NCBI GenBank assembly: GCA_019359695.1
Contig: JAHHGV010000042.1
Span: 1 to 64,000 of the forward strand
Length of the DNA stretch: 64,000 bases
Source of the DNA: Brasilonema angustatum HA4187-MV1
GTDB lineage: Bacteria; Cyanobacteriota; Cyanobacteriia; Cyanobacteriales; Nostocaceae
Direction of reading: 5' to 3'
Within the stretch, counting starts at the first letter, position 1, and each line of letters opens with the position of its first letter. The translations under genes were made by a program, and so were the position numbers. Positions 15,019 to 38,532 of this stretch are shown piece after piece. The notes below the pieces were generated by a model. The model ran no database searches. It saw only the letters and a list, made by a program, of their open reading frames with translations, and was not told the origin of the DNA.

Positions 15019-17934
15019 TTGCAATACCTGGCGTTAGATTGGGTAGAACAAACACTGGATCGGCTTGATAAGATAAAAAATCCTCCGCCGATTCCCTTGC
15101 TGATTGAGTTACGCACTTATATGCGGCAACGGGAAGATAAAGAATGCAGTAATTTTCTTGAGTTCTTTCATAAATCTAGTGGTGCGATCGCTCACCTCAA
15201 TCAACATAAATTGCAAGAACAACTCAAGGCTGGTAACGCCTTATTCATGTTTGATGGTTTGGATGAAGTTTTTGATCCTGGTAGGCGAGAAGATGTCATA
15301 GCAGATATTCACCGCTTCACAAATGAATATCCCAATGTACAAGTCATTGTGACTTCTCGCGTTATTGGATATAAAGCGCAACGGCTGCGAGATGCTGAGT
15401 TTAAGCATTTCATGCTGCAAGATTTGGAACCAGAACAAATTCAAGATTTTATCAACCGTTGGCATTCTGACACATTTACTGACAAGATTGATGGAGATAG
15501 AAAAAAAGAGCGACTGCAAAGAGCAATTGACACATCAAACTCGATAGCAGAACTTGCTGGAAATCCTTTATTGTTGACGATGATGGCAATTTTGAATCGT
15601 AACCAAGAATTGCCAAGAGATAGAGCAGAACTTTACAACCAAGCATCGCGGGTGCTGCTGCATCAATGGGATGTGGAACGTGCTTTGACGGAAGATAAGA
15701 GATTAGATCCAAAAACGATAGATTATAAAGATAAGCAAGCAATGTTACGTCAAGTTGCTTACCATATGCAAACCAGTGAAAAAGGTTTGGCAGGTAATTT
15801 GATAAGTGCGAGTGATTTAGAAAGGATTTTGACCGATTATCTAAAAACTATCGAAGTTGACAAAGCAAGAGAAGCTGCCAGAGTGATGATAAATCAACTG
15901 CGGACTCGCAACTTTATGTTATGTTTCCTGGGTGCAGATTACTATGCGTTTGTTCATCGGACATTTTTGGAATATTTCTGTGCTTGGGAATTTGTCTGGC
16001 AGTTTAAAGAGACGCGATCGCTAGAACTTGAAGAACTTAAGACGCAAGTTTTTGGCAAACATTGGCATGATGAAACTTGGCATGAAGTCTTGCGGCTGAT
16101 TACAGGAATGATTGAACCAAAATTTGTTGGTGAAATTTTGGAATACTTAATTGGGCAGAATGGTGAGGCGGAGAAATTTAGCAACTTTTTTTTGGCGGCT
16201 AAGTGTCTTTCTGAGGTGAGGAATAGGACAGTAATTGTAAACACTGTTCAGAAATTACTAAAGCGCTTTAAAGACTTAACCAAATATGACTTAAATTATT
16301 ATTACGACTTATTTGATGAACAAACAAAACTAGTTCAGAAAATTCGCACCCAAGCAGTCGAAGCATTAGCCAGCAACTACAAAGATGACGCTGATGCTTT
16401 AGCCTTCCTCAAACAACGGGCTACTGCTGATGATGATTCGTTTGTACGATATGCAGCAGTCGAAGCATTAGCCAGCAACTACAAAGATGACGCTGATGCT
16501 TTAGCCTTCCTCAAACAACGGGCTACTGCTGATGATGATTCGTTTGTGCGATATGCAGCAGTCGAAGCATTAGCCAGCAACTACAAAGATAAGGCTGATA
16601 CCTTAGGCTGGCTTAAAGAACGCGCTACTGCTGATGATTATGCGTTTGTGCGACGTGCAGCAGCTGAAGCATTAGTCAGCAACTACAAAGATGACACTGA
16701 GACTTTAGCCATCCTCAAACAACGGGCTACTGCTGATGATAATTGGGATGTGCGACGTGCAGCAGTCCAAGCATTAGTCAGCAACTACCAAGATGACACT
16801 GAGACTTTAGCCATCCTCAAACAAAGCACTACTGCTGATGATAATTCGTTTGTGCGAGGTGCAGCAGTCCAAGCATTCGCCAGCAACTACAAAGATGACC
16901 CTGATACCAAAGCCTTCCTCAAACAACGCGCTACTGCTGATGATGATTCGTCTGTGCGACGCGCAGCAATCGAAGCATTAGCCAGTAACTATAAAGATGA
17001 TGCTGATACCTTAGACTTCCTCAAACAACGCGCTACTGCTGATGATGATTCGTCTGTGCGAGGTGCAGCAGTCCAAGCATTCGCCAGCAACTACAAAGAT
17101 GACCCTGAGACTAAAGCCTTCCTCAAAACTCGCGCTACTGATGATAGTTGGAATGTGCGATATGCAGCAGTCCAAGCATTCGCCAGCAACTACAAAGATG
17201 ACCCTGATACAAAAGCCATCCTCAAACAACGGGCTACTGCTGATGATAATTGGGATGTGCGAGGTGCAGCAGTCCAAGCATTCGCCAGCAACTACAAAGA
17301 TGACCCTGAGACTAAAGCCTTCCTCGAAACTCGCGCTACTGCTGATGATGATTGGGATGTGCGAGGTGCAGCAGTCCAAGCATTCGCCAGCAACTACAAA
17401 GATGACCCTGATACAAAAGCCTTCCTCAAAACTCGCGCTACTGATGATGATGATTTGAATGTGCGAGGTGCAGCAGTCCAAGCATTCGCCAGCAACTACA
17501 AAGATGACCCTGATACAAAAGCCTTCCTCATAACTCGCGCTACTGATGATGATGATTCGTCTGTGCGACGTGCAGCAGTCCAAGCATTCGCCAGCAACTA
17601 CAAAGATGACCCTGATACAAAAGCCTTCCTCATAACTCGCGCTACTGATGATGATGATTCGTCTGTGCGACGTGCAGCAGTCCAAGCTTTAGGTAAAAAT
17701 TTTCCCTATCAGCCTGAGTTGTTTGATATTTACCACAACTGCGCTGTCAATGATCCCTTTGAGCGCAAGGAAAACAATGAAACTAATCCTCGGCGAGTAG
17801 CACTTGAGATAATTATCAAACAACATCCTCACCATCCCCAAACTTTACCACTTTTGCGCGACAGAGCAGAGAATGATCCCGATGAGCAAGTGCGGGAGTA
17901 TGCTCAGAAGAAGTTGGCAGAATTAGAGAAGTAG
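15019..17934 (+). CDS. NACHT NTPase with C-terminal HEAT-type repeats
   Basis: The track start is a TTG inside the P-loop; the true domain begins upstream at KYIVILGDPGSGKST (14971). NACHT features are the Walker B block ALFMFDGLDEVFDPGRRED, the sensor VQVIVTSRVIGY, and the winged-helix-side motif ELAGNPLLLTMMAILNRN with YNQASRVLLHQWD. After a helical linker to about residue 445 come 13 nearly identical 33-34-aa repeats (VEALASNYKDDADALAFLKQRATADDDSFVR type) and two degenerate ones. STAND NTPases of this architecture are signal-triggered switches, and several bacterial NACHT proteins are antiphage effectors, so a defence role is inferred from family and context. Without the upstream TAG being bypassed, this ORF lacks an intact P-loop start. 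Confidence 0.85.
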   Translation: MQYLALDWVEQTLDRLDKIKNPPPIPLLIELRTYMRQREDKECSNFLEFFHKSSGAIAHLNQHKLQEQLKAGNALFMFDGLDEVFDPGRREDVIADIHRFTNEYPNVQVIVTSRVIGYKAQRLRDAEFKHFMLQDLEPEQIQDFINRWHSDTFTDKIDGDRKKERLQRAIDTSNSIAELAGNPLLLTMMAILNRNQELPRDRAELYNQASRVLLHQWDVERALTEDKRLDPKTIDYKDKQAMLRQVAYHMQTSEKGLAGNLISASDLERILTDYLKTIEVDKAREAARVMINQLRTRNFMLCFLGADYYAFVHRTFLEYFCAWEFVWQFKETRSLELEELKTQVFGKHWHDETWHEVLRLITGMIEPKFVGEILEYLIGQNGEAEKFSNFFLAAKCLSEVRNRTVIVNTVQKLLKRFKDLTKYDLNYYYDLFDEQTKLVQKIRTQAVEALASNYKDDADALAFLKQRATADDDSFVRYAAVEALASNYKDDADALAFLKQRATADDDSFVRYAAVEALASNYKDKADTLGWLKERATADDYAFVRRAAAEALVSNYKDDTETLAILKQRATADDNWDVRRAAVQALVSNYQDDTETLAILKQSTTADDNSFVRGAAVQAFASNYKDDPDTKAFLKQRATADDDSSVRRAAIEALASNYKDDADTLDFLKQRATADDDSSVRGAAVQAFASNYKDDPETKAFLKTRATDDSWNVRYAAVQAFASNYKDDPDTKAILKQRATADDNWDVRGAAVQAFASNYKDDPETKAFLETRATADDDWDVRGAAVQAFASNYKDDPDTKAFLKTRATDDDDLNVRGAAVQAFASNYKDDPDTKAFLITRATDDDDSSVRRAAVQAFASNYKDDPDTKAFLITRATDDDDSSVRRAAVQALGKNFPYQPELFDIYHNCAVNDPFERKENNETNPRRVALEIIIKQHPHHPQTLPLLRDRAENDPDEQVREYAQKKLAELEK
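16354..17688 (+). repeat. Coding tandem array of 13 HEAT-type repeats (about 102 bp each)
   Basis: Successive units start gcagtcgaagcattagcc or gcagtccaagcattcgcc and are near-identical in DNA, not just protein. The first two differ at about one base, and the last two are also practically identical. One unit (about 17101-17199) is one codon shorter. Such homogeneity means recent unit duplication or gene conversion. Confidence 0.95.
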
Positions 17935-35567: not shown

Positions 35568-35623
35568 TTTTCCTCTAAAATAGGATAACTCTCATCAGAC
35601 GACATCTGCATACAGTCCTAATA

Positions 35624-35731
35624 TTACTTGTTTCTTTGTGCTTCGTCTTCGATAGTTTGGTCAAGGCGCTCATTTGCATCCTTAAGCTGTTTCGCCAATT
35701 CTACAGTGGATACCATTCCAGCTTCAGCCAT
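35624..35731 (-). CDS. Possible 35-aa peptide downstream of the VWA gene
   Basis: ATG to TAA encodes MAEAGMVSTVELAKQLKDAN, DQTIEDEAQRNK: a compact amphipathic helix. The frame is also open upstream of the ATG for about 25 codons without a good start. It lies 80 bp after the VWA-DUF2235 gene on the same strand and could be cotranscribed. It is too short for family assignment. Confidence 0.35.
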   Translation of the reverse strand: MAEAGMVSTVELAKQLKDANERLDQTIEDEAQRNK

Positions 35732-35811
35732 TTGTAATCCCTCTTGAATATGACCAGAGTCTGCAAGGTATACACCGACAGGGTGACAATTACACTGAGT
35801 ACTGTATTGGC

Positions 35812-37809
35812 TTATTCTTCTGTGAGCAGTAAATCCTTAAGCATCGGTTCTAGATTCTGGGGACGATAATCAGGACAAGCTTTTAATCGTTTAACTAAAC
35901 TGCGATGAATAGAAACGATCGAAGAGTTAATAGACCGCAATTCTTCACCCCCCAAACGATACAAGCCCGTTACACTATTATCAAATTTAGTCGTGTAATC
36001 TACTTTAATTTGAAGCTCCTCACTATCATTTTCAGTGGAACAAAACTCTAATCCAAGTTTTTTCGCTTGATTGACCATCCATTGCAAAGAATAATCCGAT
36101 AGCCCTTGATATTCTTTAGTTCCGCCGCCAACACAACCATGTTCGCCAATAAAGAAAACCTCTTTAATCACCTGATCCTGATTCAGATTTTTTGGGTTTC
36201 TTTCCATTGGCGTGGAGGGAAAACTTTTACGTTTCTCATCAGTAGCCACCGCATGAAAGGCATTTTCGATAATGGGGCTGAGTTTGGCATCGAAAAATTC
36301 ATCCTTTTTGTTCCAAATTGTGCTAATTGATAGCCAAGGGATAATATCAGGTATCCCTAAAGCTCCTACCGTATCCCAACAACCTAACATTTTGATCGGC
36401 ACACGATACTGTAAATAATTCTCTTTTGCATCAATTTGATTCGCATTATCCTTACGAAATTGTTGTGCCTTGGGATCACTCGGCCGAATGTTAGGATCTC
36501 GATATAGATGATAGGCTTTAGCAATTTCTCGGATCTTAGAACGCTTTAATAAACCACATTTGTAGATCATTCCCGCTAGACAACGAACGGCATAAGCACC
36601 ACGACTGAAACCCACTAGATAAATTTCATCTTGAGAATCTACATTGTAATTCATACATAAAAAGCGATAGGCATCACTGATAATTCGCTGAATTCCCCAG
36701 CCAAAGGCACCACCGCCTAATTTGTTAATTAAATCATCATCATCTTCTACCGTGCCAGGTTCCGATAAATAGTAAACCATCTGCGGTGTTTGATCGTCCG
36801 CCGTATATTTAATTGACCGGGCAAACTTGACCACATTTGTCGGATAGAAACTGTCCAATCGCTCCCAAGTTCCATCACAACAAACCACTAATCGTTTCTT
36901 TTTATTTGTTGGCGAAGGTTCGGTCAGTTCGGGTTTAACAGACTCTTCGTTTCGTTTCTTTTTATTTGTTGGCGAAGGTTCGGTCAGTTCGGGTTTAACA
37001 GACTCTTGGTTAACAGATTCTTGATCGTCAGGGATAGATAATGGTTTAGAGTTAGTTATGACTATTGGGGATTCTAGGATGCCAATACTAGATGGAATTT
37101 CTGTCACTAATTGAGTTTCTTCTACAAGATCTTTGCTATCAACTGCTCCTGGTTTCAGCTTTGGCCTTTTCGCAGTGCGACTACCACAAATGACTTTTTC
37201 TAATACTGAACTAAAGCCTTTAATAGTATCTTTTTCAGTGAAAGCTTGTCCCCCTGTTTCGGTGGCAACCCTGTCATATTCTGTGGCAATACTTTGTCGA
37301 TATCTACTTTTGGAAGTGCCAAAGTAGGTATGAACAGTAACTCCTGCTCCTTTAGCTTTTTGGATAGCTAAATTAGCAGCTTCTATATCTTTTTGCTGCG
37401 TTCTTCCCCCACCTTCATCTAAAGCTTCATCCCCAAGGTAAAAGATTGCTCTGGCTGCACCCTCACGCCAATCAAAATAATTGCAGACATCTTCAATGGC
37501 ACGAGCTGCATCTTCTTGCGCTCCTGCTGACTTTAATTCTCCTCTTTTTCTCCCCCGGAGTTTGGATTCAGATATTTTACAATTTTGTGTCAGATAAGCT
37601 CTGATGGTTTGGTCAAAATTTGTCCCTTTCCAAGTACCTTCGATACCAAACCAAGCTACTCTTAAATCTGAAGGACAACTAGAATTAGCGGCTGTAATTG
37701 CAGCAGAAGCCGCATCACTAAGAGCCTGTGCTTCATCTTTCATCGAAGGACTAGTATCGATGACGATTACTAAATCAACAGGAGGTATATTGTTTATTTG
37801 ATTGCTCAT
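35812..37809 (-). CDS. VWA domain fused to a DUF2235 (Tle1-like) hydrolase
   Basis: The 665-aa protein has two modules. Residues ~10-215 form a von Willebrand A domain with the MIDAS motif VIDTSPSMKDE and FYLGDEALDEGGG. Residues ~305-655 form a DUF2235 alpha/beta hydrolase: RLVVCCDGTWERL, the nucleophile elbow VGFSRGAYAVRCLAGM, WDTVGALGIPDIIP, FHAVATDEKRKSF and FFIGEHGCVGGG. DUF2235 includes the type VI secretion phospholipases Tle1. The ~90-residue linker has a 20-aa direct duplication. No signal peptide is present, so it is cytoplasmic or needs a partner for delivery. Function is inferred as ligand- or Mg-adhesion-gated lipid/ester hydrolysis; the pairing is unusual. Confidence 0.82.
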   Translation of the reverse strand: MSNQINNIPPVDLVIVIDTSPSMKDEAQALSDAASAAITAANSSCPSDLRVAWFGIEGTWKGTNFDQTIRAYLTQNCKISESKLRGRKRGELKSAGAQEDAARAIEDVCNYFDWREGAARAIFYLGDEALDEGGGRTQQKDIEAANLAIQKAKGAGVTVHTYFGTSKSRYRQSIATEYDRVATETGGQAFTEKDTIKGFSSVLEKVICGSRTAKRPKLKPGAVDSKDLVEETQLVTEIPSSIGILESPIVITNSKPLSIPDDQESVNQESVKPELTEPSPTNKKKRNEESVKPELTEPSPTNKKKRLVVCCDGTWERLDSFYPTNVVKFARSIKYTADDQTPQMVYYLSEPGTVEDDDDLINKLGGGAFGWGIQRIISDAYRFLCMNYNVDSQDEIYLVGFSRGAYAVRCLAGMIYKCGLLKRSKIREIAKAYHLYRDPNIRPSDPKAQQFRKDNANQIDAKENYLQYRVPIKMLGCWDTVGALGIPDIIPWLSISTIWNKKDEFFDAKLSPIIENAFHAVATDEKRKSFPSTPMERNPKNLNQDQVIKEVFFIGEHGCVGGGTKEYQGLSDYSLQWMVNQAKKLGLEFCSTENDSEELQIKVDYTTKFDNSVTGLYRLGGEELRSINSSIVSIHRSLVKRLKACPDYRPQNLEPMLKDLLLTEE
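36893..37012. repeat. 60-bp tandem duplication in the VWA-DUF2235 linker
   Basis: Two 60-bp units (36893-36952, 36953-37012) encode EESVKPELTEPSPTNKKKR twice with at most a few base changes. Twenty codons per unit keep the frame. This is a young duplication that lengthens the interdomain linker. Confidence 0.92.
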
Positions 37810-38151
37810 ATTGTTCTGCCTTTTTTCCCTTTAGCTGAAATCAAATAATTTCATACTTGAAGAGGTGTATGAGTGTAAAGAAAAAAAAACTAAACAACAG
37901 ACATGAATTTCCGATAGTCACTTTTGCAAACGGATTGCTGAAATTTTTGTCCGTGATTATTTGGTAAAGCAAAACTGCTTCTTATAAAAATTGAAATCAA
38001 AAATATATAAGTGTCATATATTTAACGCTGGCTTTAGAAAAAATTTATATTTAAAAAAGTTATCTTAAATCATATATCATAAATTTTGTCAATAAATCAA
38101 TATTACATCTTTGAGAGTATACTGTCATAAATATTAGCTGTCTAGATTTAT
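37810..38151. other. AT-rich intergenic region, promoter of the VWA gene
   Basis: The 342 bp are strongly AT-rich with A/T runs. No ORF, RNA or repeat element was recognised. The promoter for the minus-strand VWA gene should be here. Confidence 0.4.
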
Positions 38152-38367
38152 TTACATTACTTTATCATAATGCACTGGAATTTGACGACTTGCTAGTAAG
38201 TGTTGAAATGCAATGCGGTTCATCAGAGCAAACCGACTCGCTTGAGCAAGGGTAAGCTTTTCCTTGTGAAATAACATGACTGCAATTTCCTGCCTCATTT
38301 CAGCGTCAGTCATGCGGGTTGTAGTTAAAATCTCATCAGGGATAATGATGCTCATGAGTACATTCAT
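38152..38367 (-). CDS. UPF0175 family small protein, C-terminally shortened
   Basis: I start at MNVLMSIIIPDEIL; MSIIIPDE (38355) is an alternative. The protein has the UPF0175 pattern TDAEMRQEIAVMLFHKEKLTLAQASRFALMNR, FQHLLASRQIPVHYD. These are HTH-like small proteins often found as antitoxins with PIN-type toxins (family knowledge). The usual acidic tail after IPVHYD is missing; instead KVM-stop follows, so the last ~15 residues appear lost. No toxin gene is adjacent. Confidence 0.72.
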   Translation of the reverse strand: MNVLMSIIIPDEILTTTRMTDAEMRQEIAVMLFHKEKLTLAQASRFALMNRIAFQHLLASRQIPVHYDKVM

Positions 38368-38424
38368 CTCTATCACCCCCATTGTAAGCGTACAGGGCGA
38401 TCGCAATTCTAAATGCCATCAAAC

Positions 38425-38463
38425 GAAACCCAACATCTATAATCATGCTTAGTGTTGGGTTTC
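38425..38463. repeat. Inverted repeat (gaaacccaaca / tgttgggtttc)
   Basis: Perfect 11-bp arms around 17 nt, followed by ttcaacccaacctac and a run of ctgataa heptamers (about 38500-38527). This is a dispersed repeat directly upstream of the GTPase gene. Confidence 0.65.
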
Positions 38464-38532
38464 ACTCCGTTCAACCCAACCTACAACTACAACTACTGAT
38501 AACTGATAACTGATAACTGATAACTGAATAAC

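What the first reader, a model, noticed from the sequence alone, without database searches (positions are those of the whole stretch)
35812..37809. VWA domain fused to a DUF2235 (Tle1-like) hydrolase
DUF2235 proteins include secreted phospholipase effectors. A fusion with a MIDAS-bearing VWA domain, without secretion signal, suggests a self-contained, adhesion-gated lipase. Such a protein could act on the cell's own membranes, as in abortive infection, or be loaded to a secretion or contractile apparatus by the VWA part.
Basis: partly seen in the sequence, partly recalled or inferred. Interest (0 to 1): 0.65.

Follow-up and report, generated by a model that had tools for sequence, protein, structure and literature searches.

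The report
VWA-fused lipase of cyanobacterial oxylipin kin
A cyanobacterial gene joins a ligand-binding domain (VWA) to a fat-splitting enzyme of a family known mainly from bacterial weapons; its relatives sit beside, or are fused to, enzymes that oxidise fatty acids into signalling-type molecules, so it is more likely a targeted lipase of the cell's own lipid chemistry than an injected toxin.

Summary
One 665-codon gene (35812-37809, minus strand) encodes a VWA domain with MIDAS residues, a low-complexity linker with a 60-bp duplication, and a DUF2235 (Tle1-like, PF09994) hydrolase with Ser402-Asp479-His557 conserved. AlphaFold models match VWA/integrin I domains and Tle1 structures. Toxin-delivery and abortive-infection readings get no support: no T6SS, eCIS, immunity or defence genes among 19 window proteins scanned.
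Comparative evidence points elsewhere. In cyanobacteria, DUF2235 genes are repeatedly next to, or fused with, COX-like dioxygenases plus a catalase-like protein (31 of 110 loci), or next to lipoxygenases (9 of 110). 32 of 56 dioxygenase-bearing genomes have the pair adjacent. The same VWA family lies beside three unrelated lipase folds. The window's hydrolase belongs to a clade whose members mostly carry LamG (lectin-like) domains instead of VWA.
Best reading: an intracellular, VWA-targeted lipase releasing fatty acids from membrane lipids. That it feeds oxylipin formation in this strain is inferred: no oxygenase lies beside it, and the genome lacks the dioxygenase, with only an unlinked mini-lipoxygenase. 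The gene is an accessory insertion absent from congeners. New variant of a known kind.

The parts
35812..37809 (-). VWA-DUF2235 fusion gene, 665 aa
   Evidence: open frame with ATG and a purine-rich (AAAGGG/AAGG) stretch upstream; 98% identical full-length copy in Brasilonema sp. CT11
37123..37809 (-). VWA domain, residues 1-229, MIDAS D18xS20xS22, T63, D127
   Evidence: alignments A1/A6; AlphaFold + Foldseek to VWA/integrin I domains
36904..37122 (-). flexible linker, residues 230-302, Pro/Glu/Lys-rich
   Evidence: sequence; VWA homology to the giant relatives ends at about its start (KLKPGAV)
36892..37011 (-). tandem duplication of 60 bp (2 copies, 98%), encoding EESVKPELTEPSPTNKKKR twice
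   Evidence: Tandem Repeats Finder; both copies also in the CT11-type genome
35812..36903 (-). DUF2235 / Tle1-like alpha/beta hydrolase, residues 303-665
   Evidence: PF09994 E 5.7e-80; AlphaFold pLDDT 83.8, Foldseek top hit 4o5p (a Tle1 structure; entry titled uncharacterized P. aeruginosa protein) E 9.4e-11
36604..36606 (-). Ser402 of GFSRG (predicted nucleophile)
   Evidence: invariant in A5; aligned with Tle1/TleB GFSRG
36373..36375 (-). Asp479 of WDTVG (predicted acid)
   Evidence: at least 90% conserved in A5; aligned with DTV of Tle1/TleB
36139..36141 (-). His557 of GEHGCVGGG (predicted base)
   Evidence: invariant in A5; aligned with PGxHxxVGGG of Tle1/TleB
35585..38532 (.). extra block holding the fusion gene; at the same site congeners G003 and G005 have only about 235 and 165 bp between the 97-aa ORF and the GTPase gene
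   Evidence: blastn and ORF comparison with L176, L177, L178; inner edges approximate

Best explanation
A cytosolic or membrane-peripheral serine lipase. The DUF2235 domain (Ser402-Asp479-His557) hydrolyses acyl esters of membrane glycerolipids; in cyanobacteria these are mostly galactolipids, sulfolipid and phosphatidylglycerol (general knowledge). The N-terminal VWA domain, with its metal site, is a targeting or docking module that takes the place held by lectin-type LamG domains in sister proteins and that elsewhere lies beside lipases of unrelated folds. Released unsaturated fatty acids are substrates for fatty-acid oxygenases, so the enzyme family works as the lipase step of cyanobacterial oxylipin formation. 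Shown here by sequence: the fusion, the catalytic and MIDAS residues, the folds, the repeated physical linkage and gene fusion of DUF2235 relatives with dioxygenase + catalase-like or lipoxygenase + P450 genes, and the linkage of the VWA family to three lipase folds. Inferred: the lipid substrate, what VWA binds, and that this copy feeds an oxygenase (only an unlinked mini-lipoxygenase and a remote catalase-like protein were found in this genome).
For: DUF2235 next to or fused with COX-like dioxygenase: 25 neighbours + 6 fusions of 110 loci; 9 more with lipoxygenase, 7 of these also with a detected P450. The fusions are single 905-944 aa proteins, with the catalase-like gene next to five of the six. 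Reciprocal survey: dioxygenase in 56 of 391 genomes, DUF2235 in 103, both in 41 (Fisher p 1.3e-15, relatedness not corrected); 32 of 56 adjacent or fused. The dioxygenase's best solved relatives are cyclooxygenases, E 5e-63. [quoted passage not shown] 2014). Where DUF2235 is missing, another lipase fold can sit with the dioxygenase: Lipase_3 in L024, patatin in L191. VWA-lipase link: DUF2235 in L020, L025/L035, L028/L059, L029, L034, L039, L043, L044; Lipase_3 in L024, L025; patatin in L055, L056. The window hydrolase sits in the LamG-fusion clade, 100/100 support. The own genome has a mini-lipoxygenase.
Against: No oxygenase beside the window gene or beside its closest (LamG-fusion) relatives. 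The own genome has no dioxygenase of this family. About half of the surveyed DUF2235 loci have none of the tested partners, so the family need not have one role. The VWA family also neighbours PatG-like subtilases, so lipase partnership is not exclusive. The substrate of any cyanobacterial DUF2235 is untested as far as found; VWA presence and dioxygenase presence are not associated across genomes (p 0.49).
Confidence: 0.5

Rival explanations
1. Membrane-lipid remodelling or turnover lipase: VWA-targeted deacylation of membrane or storage lipids for recycling, with no oxylipin step in this strain.
For: No oxygenase linked to the window gene or its LamG-fusion clade; own genome lacks the dioxygenase; catalytic residues intact.
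Against: Other branches of the domain family are strongly tied to fatty-acid oxygenases; patchy, accessory distribution is unusual for housekeeping turnover.
Confidence: 0.22
2. Self-directed toxic effector (abortive infection or other conflict system): VWA senses or docks a signal and the lipase damages the cell's own membrane.
For: Accessory insertion; the VWA family is patchy and lies beside different hydrolases (lipases, PatG-like subtilases), a pattern also seen in conflict systems such as the VWA-MoxR systems (PMC7159879).
Against: No PADLOC match, no MoxR/VMAP, nuclease or sensor gene beside it; DUF2235 relatives sit with biosynthetic oxygenases, not defence genes; no phage-encoded relatives found.
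Confidence: 0.15
3. Secreted or injected effector (T6SS or eCIS cargo), as Tle1 phospholipases are.
For: Domain family and fold are those of Tle1/TleB.
Against: No T6SS/eCIS gene or immunity gene among the window proteins scanned; the hydrolase is about 365 aa, whereas the 4o5p chain has 742 residues in the model; stand-alone relatives lie in biosynthetic clusters. Genome-wide T6SS/eCIS search not done.
Confidence: 0.04
4. Recent, non-functional fusion: an accident of deletion or insertion that joined a VWA module to a hydrolase.
For: Found in only two closely related genomes; the linker carries a near-identical 60-bp duplication.
Against: Frame intact and 98% conserved between two genomes; catalytic and MIDAS residues kept; clade sisters are also N-terminal fusions, one shown with a similar repetitive linker.
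Confidence: 0.09

Closest known systems
Tle1 / TleB T6SS phospholipases (PF09994; PDB 4o5p, 6sjl, 9j3f)
   Same: alpha/beta hydrolase fold, GFSRG, DTV and PGxHxxVGGG motifs
   Different: no T6SS or immunity genes found nearby; shorter hydrolase; N-terminal VWA; cyanobacterial relatives in oxygenase clusters
LamG-DUF2235 proteins of other cyanobacteria (L071-L078, L175; L088 with tectonin and jacalin-like domains)
   Same: hydrolase 61-70% identical, same clade, N-terminal binding module
   Different: lectin-like LamG instead of VWA
Cyanobacterial VWA-propeller giant proteins with neighbouring DUF2235 (L020, L059 and others)
   Same: VWA 66-77% identical; DUF2235 as a separate gene nearby in several
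   Different: VWA there is followed by a beta-propeller-like, a beta-rich and a long repeat region; lipase not fused
Linoleate 10S-dioxygenase + catalase-related lyase pair of Nostoc punctiforme (Brash et al. 2014, via PMC9579011)
   Same: the gene pair beside DUF2235 in other cyanobacteria appears to be of this type
   Different: absent beside the window gene; dioxygenase absent from the genome
VWA-MoxR-VMAP ternary conflict systems (PMC7159879)
   Same: VWA coupled to varying effector enzymes
   Different: no MoxR or VMAP gene beside it

Membership tests
DUF2235 / Tle1-like catalytic domain (PF09994) | profile score above curated cut-off | tested here: met
   269 bits vs cut-off 27
DUF2235 / Tle1-like catalytic domain (PF09994) | GFSRG nucleophile, Asp and His of the triad | tested here: met
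   S402, D479, H557 conserved and aligned to Tle1/TleB; geometry not measured
T6SS Tle1 effector | T6SS genes, VgrG/PAAR or cognate immunity gene nearby | tested here: not met
   none among 19 window proteins scanned; genome-wide search not done
VWA domain | Rossmann-type VWA fold with MIDAS DxSxS...T...D | tested here: met
   no Pfam VWA match at E<=1e-3
VWA-MoxR ternary conflict system | MoxR AAA+ and third component encoded alongside | tested here: not met
   neighbours are photolyase, DsbA-like, GTPase, ABC ATPase
Cyanobacterial dioxygenase/catalase-like oxylipin cassette | dioxygenase and catalase-like genes beside the lipase | tested here: not met
   absent at the window locus; no dioxygenase in the genome; the dioxygenase is next to or fused with DUF2235 in 31 of 110 loci
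Cyanobacterial dioxygenase/catalase-like oxylipin cassette | lipase releases the fatty acid that the dioxygenase oxidises | not testable with these tools
   needs biochemistry
LamG-DUF2235 fusion clade | hydrolase domain inside this clade of the DUF2235 tree | tested here: met
   clade of 16, support 100/100
Defence (Abi) lipase | match to a known defence family or defence-gene context | tested here: not met
   no PADLOC match

The most novel reading that the evidence does not exclude
DUF2235, known as a T6SS toxin domain, is the lipase that opens an ancient cyanobacterial, cyclooxygenase-like oxylipin pathway, and its VWA, LamG or H-type-lectin partners aim it at galactolipid membranes: a bacterial counterpart of the phospholipase-cyclooxygenase cascade. 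The window protein is a one-chain version of the aimed lipase.
Probability: 0.3. Interest if true: 0.72.

Novelty: new variant of a known kind. Interest (0 to 1): 0.5.

Why it matters
In the held literature DUF2235 is tied almost only to T6SS and polymorphic-toxin effectors, and no paper linking it to fatty-acid oxygenases was found. The gene linkage and gene fusions found here give a testable role for a large cyanobacterial DUF2235 group as the missing lipase step upstream of a COX-like dioxygenase. It also warns against calling every DUF2235 protein a toxin. The VWA/LamG swap suggests a modular way of aiming such lipases.

Tried and rejected
Pfam, NCBIfam and PADLOC for a defence assignment: none. 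Phage and viral collections: no relatives. Plasmid records: only about half of the query, essentially the hydrolase, at most about 40% identity in the rows shown. The first combined alignment A4 misaligned hydrolase rows onto the VWA, so the domains were modelled apart. VWA-dioxygenase co-occurrence across genomes: not significant. AAA_35 and pentapeptide neighbours of VWA giants were judged incidental. The 641-aa GTPase gene (weak LeoA/dynamin-like matches) is present in 8 of 9 relatives regardless of the fusion gene, so it is not part of the system.

Full report
What is there. The gene at 35812-37809 (minus strand, 665 aa) is a true fusion. Residues 303-665 are a DUF2235/Tle1-like hydrolase (PF09994, E 5.7e-80). 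Residues 1-229 form a VWA domain that Pfam does not recognise, but whose family alignment keeps D18-x-S20-x-S22, T63 and D127 and whose AlphaFold model (pLDDT 82.7) matches TEM8, CMG2, VWF A1 and integrin I domains. The hydrolase model (pLDDT 83.8, pTM 0.87) matches Tle1 structures first (4o5p E 9.4e-11; 6ski, 6sjl, 9j3f). A profile of 40 relatives aligns GFSRG, DTV and PGxHxxVGGG with the same motifs in TleB and Tle1, giving S402, D479 and H557 as triad. Triad geometry was not measured. There is no membrane or signal segment by hydropathy. The linker contains a 60-bp tandem duplication.

Where it occurs. The full fusion was found only in this genome and in Brasilonema sp. CT11 (98% identity). 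At the same site, congeners G003 and G005 have only about 235 and 165 bp between the flanking 97-aa ORF and the GTPase gene, and G001 has a different stretch there, while the window has about 2.95 kb. The gene is therefore accessory; gain in this lineage is the simplest reading. No relatives were found in phage records (full protein) or viral contigs (VWA). The PADLOC search was negative.

Relatives of the VWA half. In other cyanobacteria the same VWA (66-77% identity among close members) heads giant proteins of about 1,080-1,980 aa with a beta-propeller-like region, a beta-rich region and long repeats, or stands in shorter proteins of about 240-670 aa. It was found in 25 of 391 genomes of the order and in 5 further genomes of a class-level sample. 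Its neighbours include DUF2235 (L020, L025/L035, L028/L059, L029, L034, L039, L043, L044), Lipase_3 (L024, L025), patatin (L055, L056) and, in other members, PatG-like subtilases (L048-L052, L063). Thus lipases of three unrelated folds lie beside it. Of 25 VWA genomes, 11 have DUF2235, and in 6 of those the two are fused or in one locus.

Relatives of the hydrolase half. 110 loci were examined (100 fetched from the survey of 391 genomes, 9 from VWA or earlier searches, plus the window; not every survey hit was fetched). Six have DUF2235 fused to a PF03098 haem dioxygenase, 25 have that dioxygenase within two ORFs, nearly always with a catalase-like gene next, and 9 have a lipoxygenase neighbour, seven of them with a detected P450 too. 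The dioxygenase's closest solved relatives are cyclooxygenases (E 5e-63). Reciprocally, 56 of 391 genomes have the dioxygenase; 41 of them have DUF2235 (expected about 15; Fisher p 1.3e-15, not corrected for relatedness) and in 32 the genes are adjacent or fused. Where DUF2235 is absent, other lipases can take its place: Lipase_3 in L024, patatin in L191. A Nostoc punctiforme enzyme pair of this type makes linoleate 10S-hydroperoxide and cleaves it to 1-octen-3-ol (PMC9579011 citing Brash et al. 2014; the original paper is not held). That the genes here are orthologues of that pair was not tested by sequence.

Position of the window hydrolase. In the DUF2235 tree the lipoxygenase-linked genes form one clade (100/96) inside the larger oxygenase-linked group, and the window domain lies in a separate, well-supported clade of 16 (100/100) whose members mostly carry N-terminal LamG domains, one with tectonin and jacalin-like domains too. 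No member of this clade has a tested oxygenase next door. The own genome lacks the dioxygenase but has an unlinked 464-aa lipoxygenase and a remote catalase-like protein. So the oxylipin role is well supported for the oxygenase-linked group, and only inferred for this protein.

Mechanism. Most likely a cytosolic or peripheral lipase with a VWA docking module in place of LamG. The VWA ligand, the lipid substrate and the fate of the fatty acid are unproven. Confidence 0.5. Lipid turnover without oxylipins is the main rival (0.22); a self-directed toxic effector comes next (0.15); T6SS or eCIS cargo is unlikely (0.04), though the genome was not searched for those machines.

Novelty. Domain families and folds are known; the VWA-DUF2235 architecture and the linkage of DUF2235 to fatty-acid oxygenases were not found in the held papers, a limited library. 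Hence a new variant of a known kind.

Noticed in passing
L080:5070-7868, L081:5278-8076, L082:5081-7915, L083:523-3282, L084:7751-10513, L172:3465-6182: Natural one-chain fusions of DUF2235 with a COX-like haem dioxygenase (905-944 aa), the catalase-like gene next to five of the six.
   Followed up: partly
L034:2691-7121: A 1476-aa globin/nitric-oxide-synthase/reductase protein lies 0.9 kb upstream of a VWA, H-lectin, DUF2235, dioxygenase, catalase-like gene row.
   Followed up: no
L048, L049, L050, L051, L052, L063: Single or double VWA proteins of the same family sit next to PatG-like subtilases (S8 with PatG_D and PatG_C; Pfam-confirmed for L048, L050, L052, L063, similar-sized neighbours in L049 and L051).
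   Followed up: partly
L055:6301-9371, L056:6596-9673: Patatin-like phospholipase gene directly upstream (about 40 bp) of a divergent VWA gene.
   Followed up: partly
L180:4839-12166: Dioxygenase and catalase-like genes next to lipoxygenase and P450 genes in one cluster (G256).
   Followed up: no
L086:6995-15444: DUF2235-clade protein (588 aa, unknown N-terminal part) followed by a 2207-aa non-ribosomal peptide synthetase.
   Followed up: no
window 15019-17934: 971-aa protein with a weak NACHT match and HEAT repeats, a possible conflict-system protein, about 18 kb from the fusion gene.
   Followed up: no
window 38152-38406: UPF0175 ORF upstream of the fusion gene, inside the extra block.
   Followed up: no
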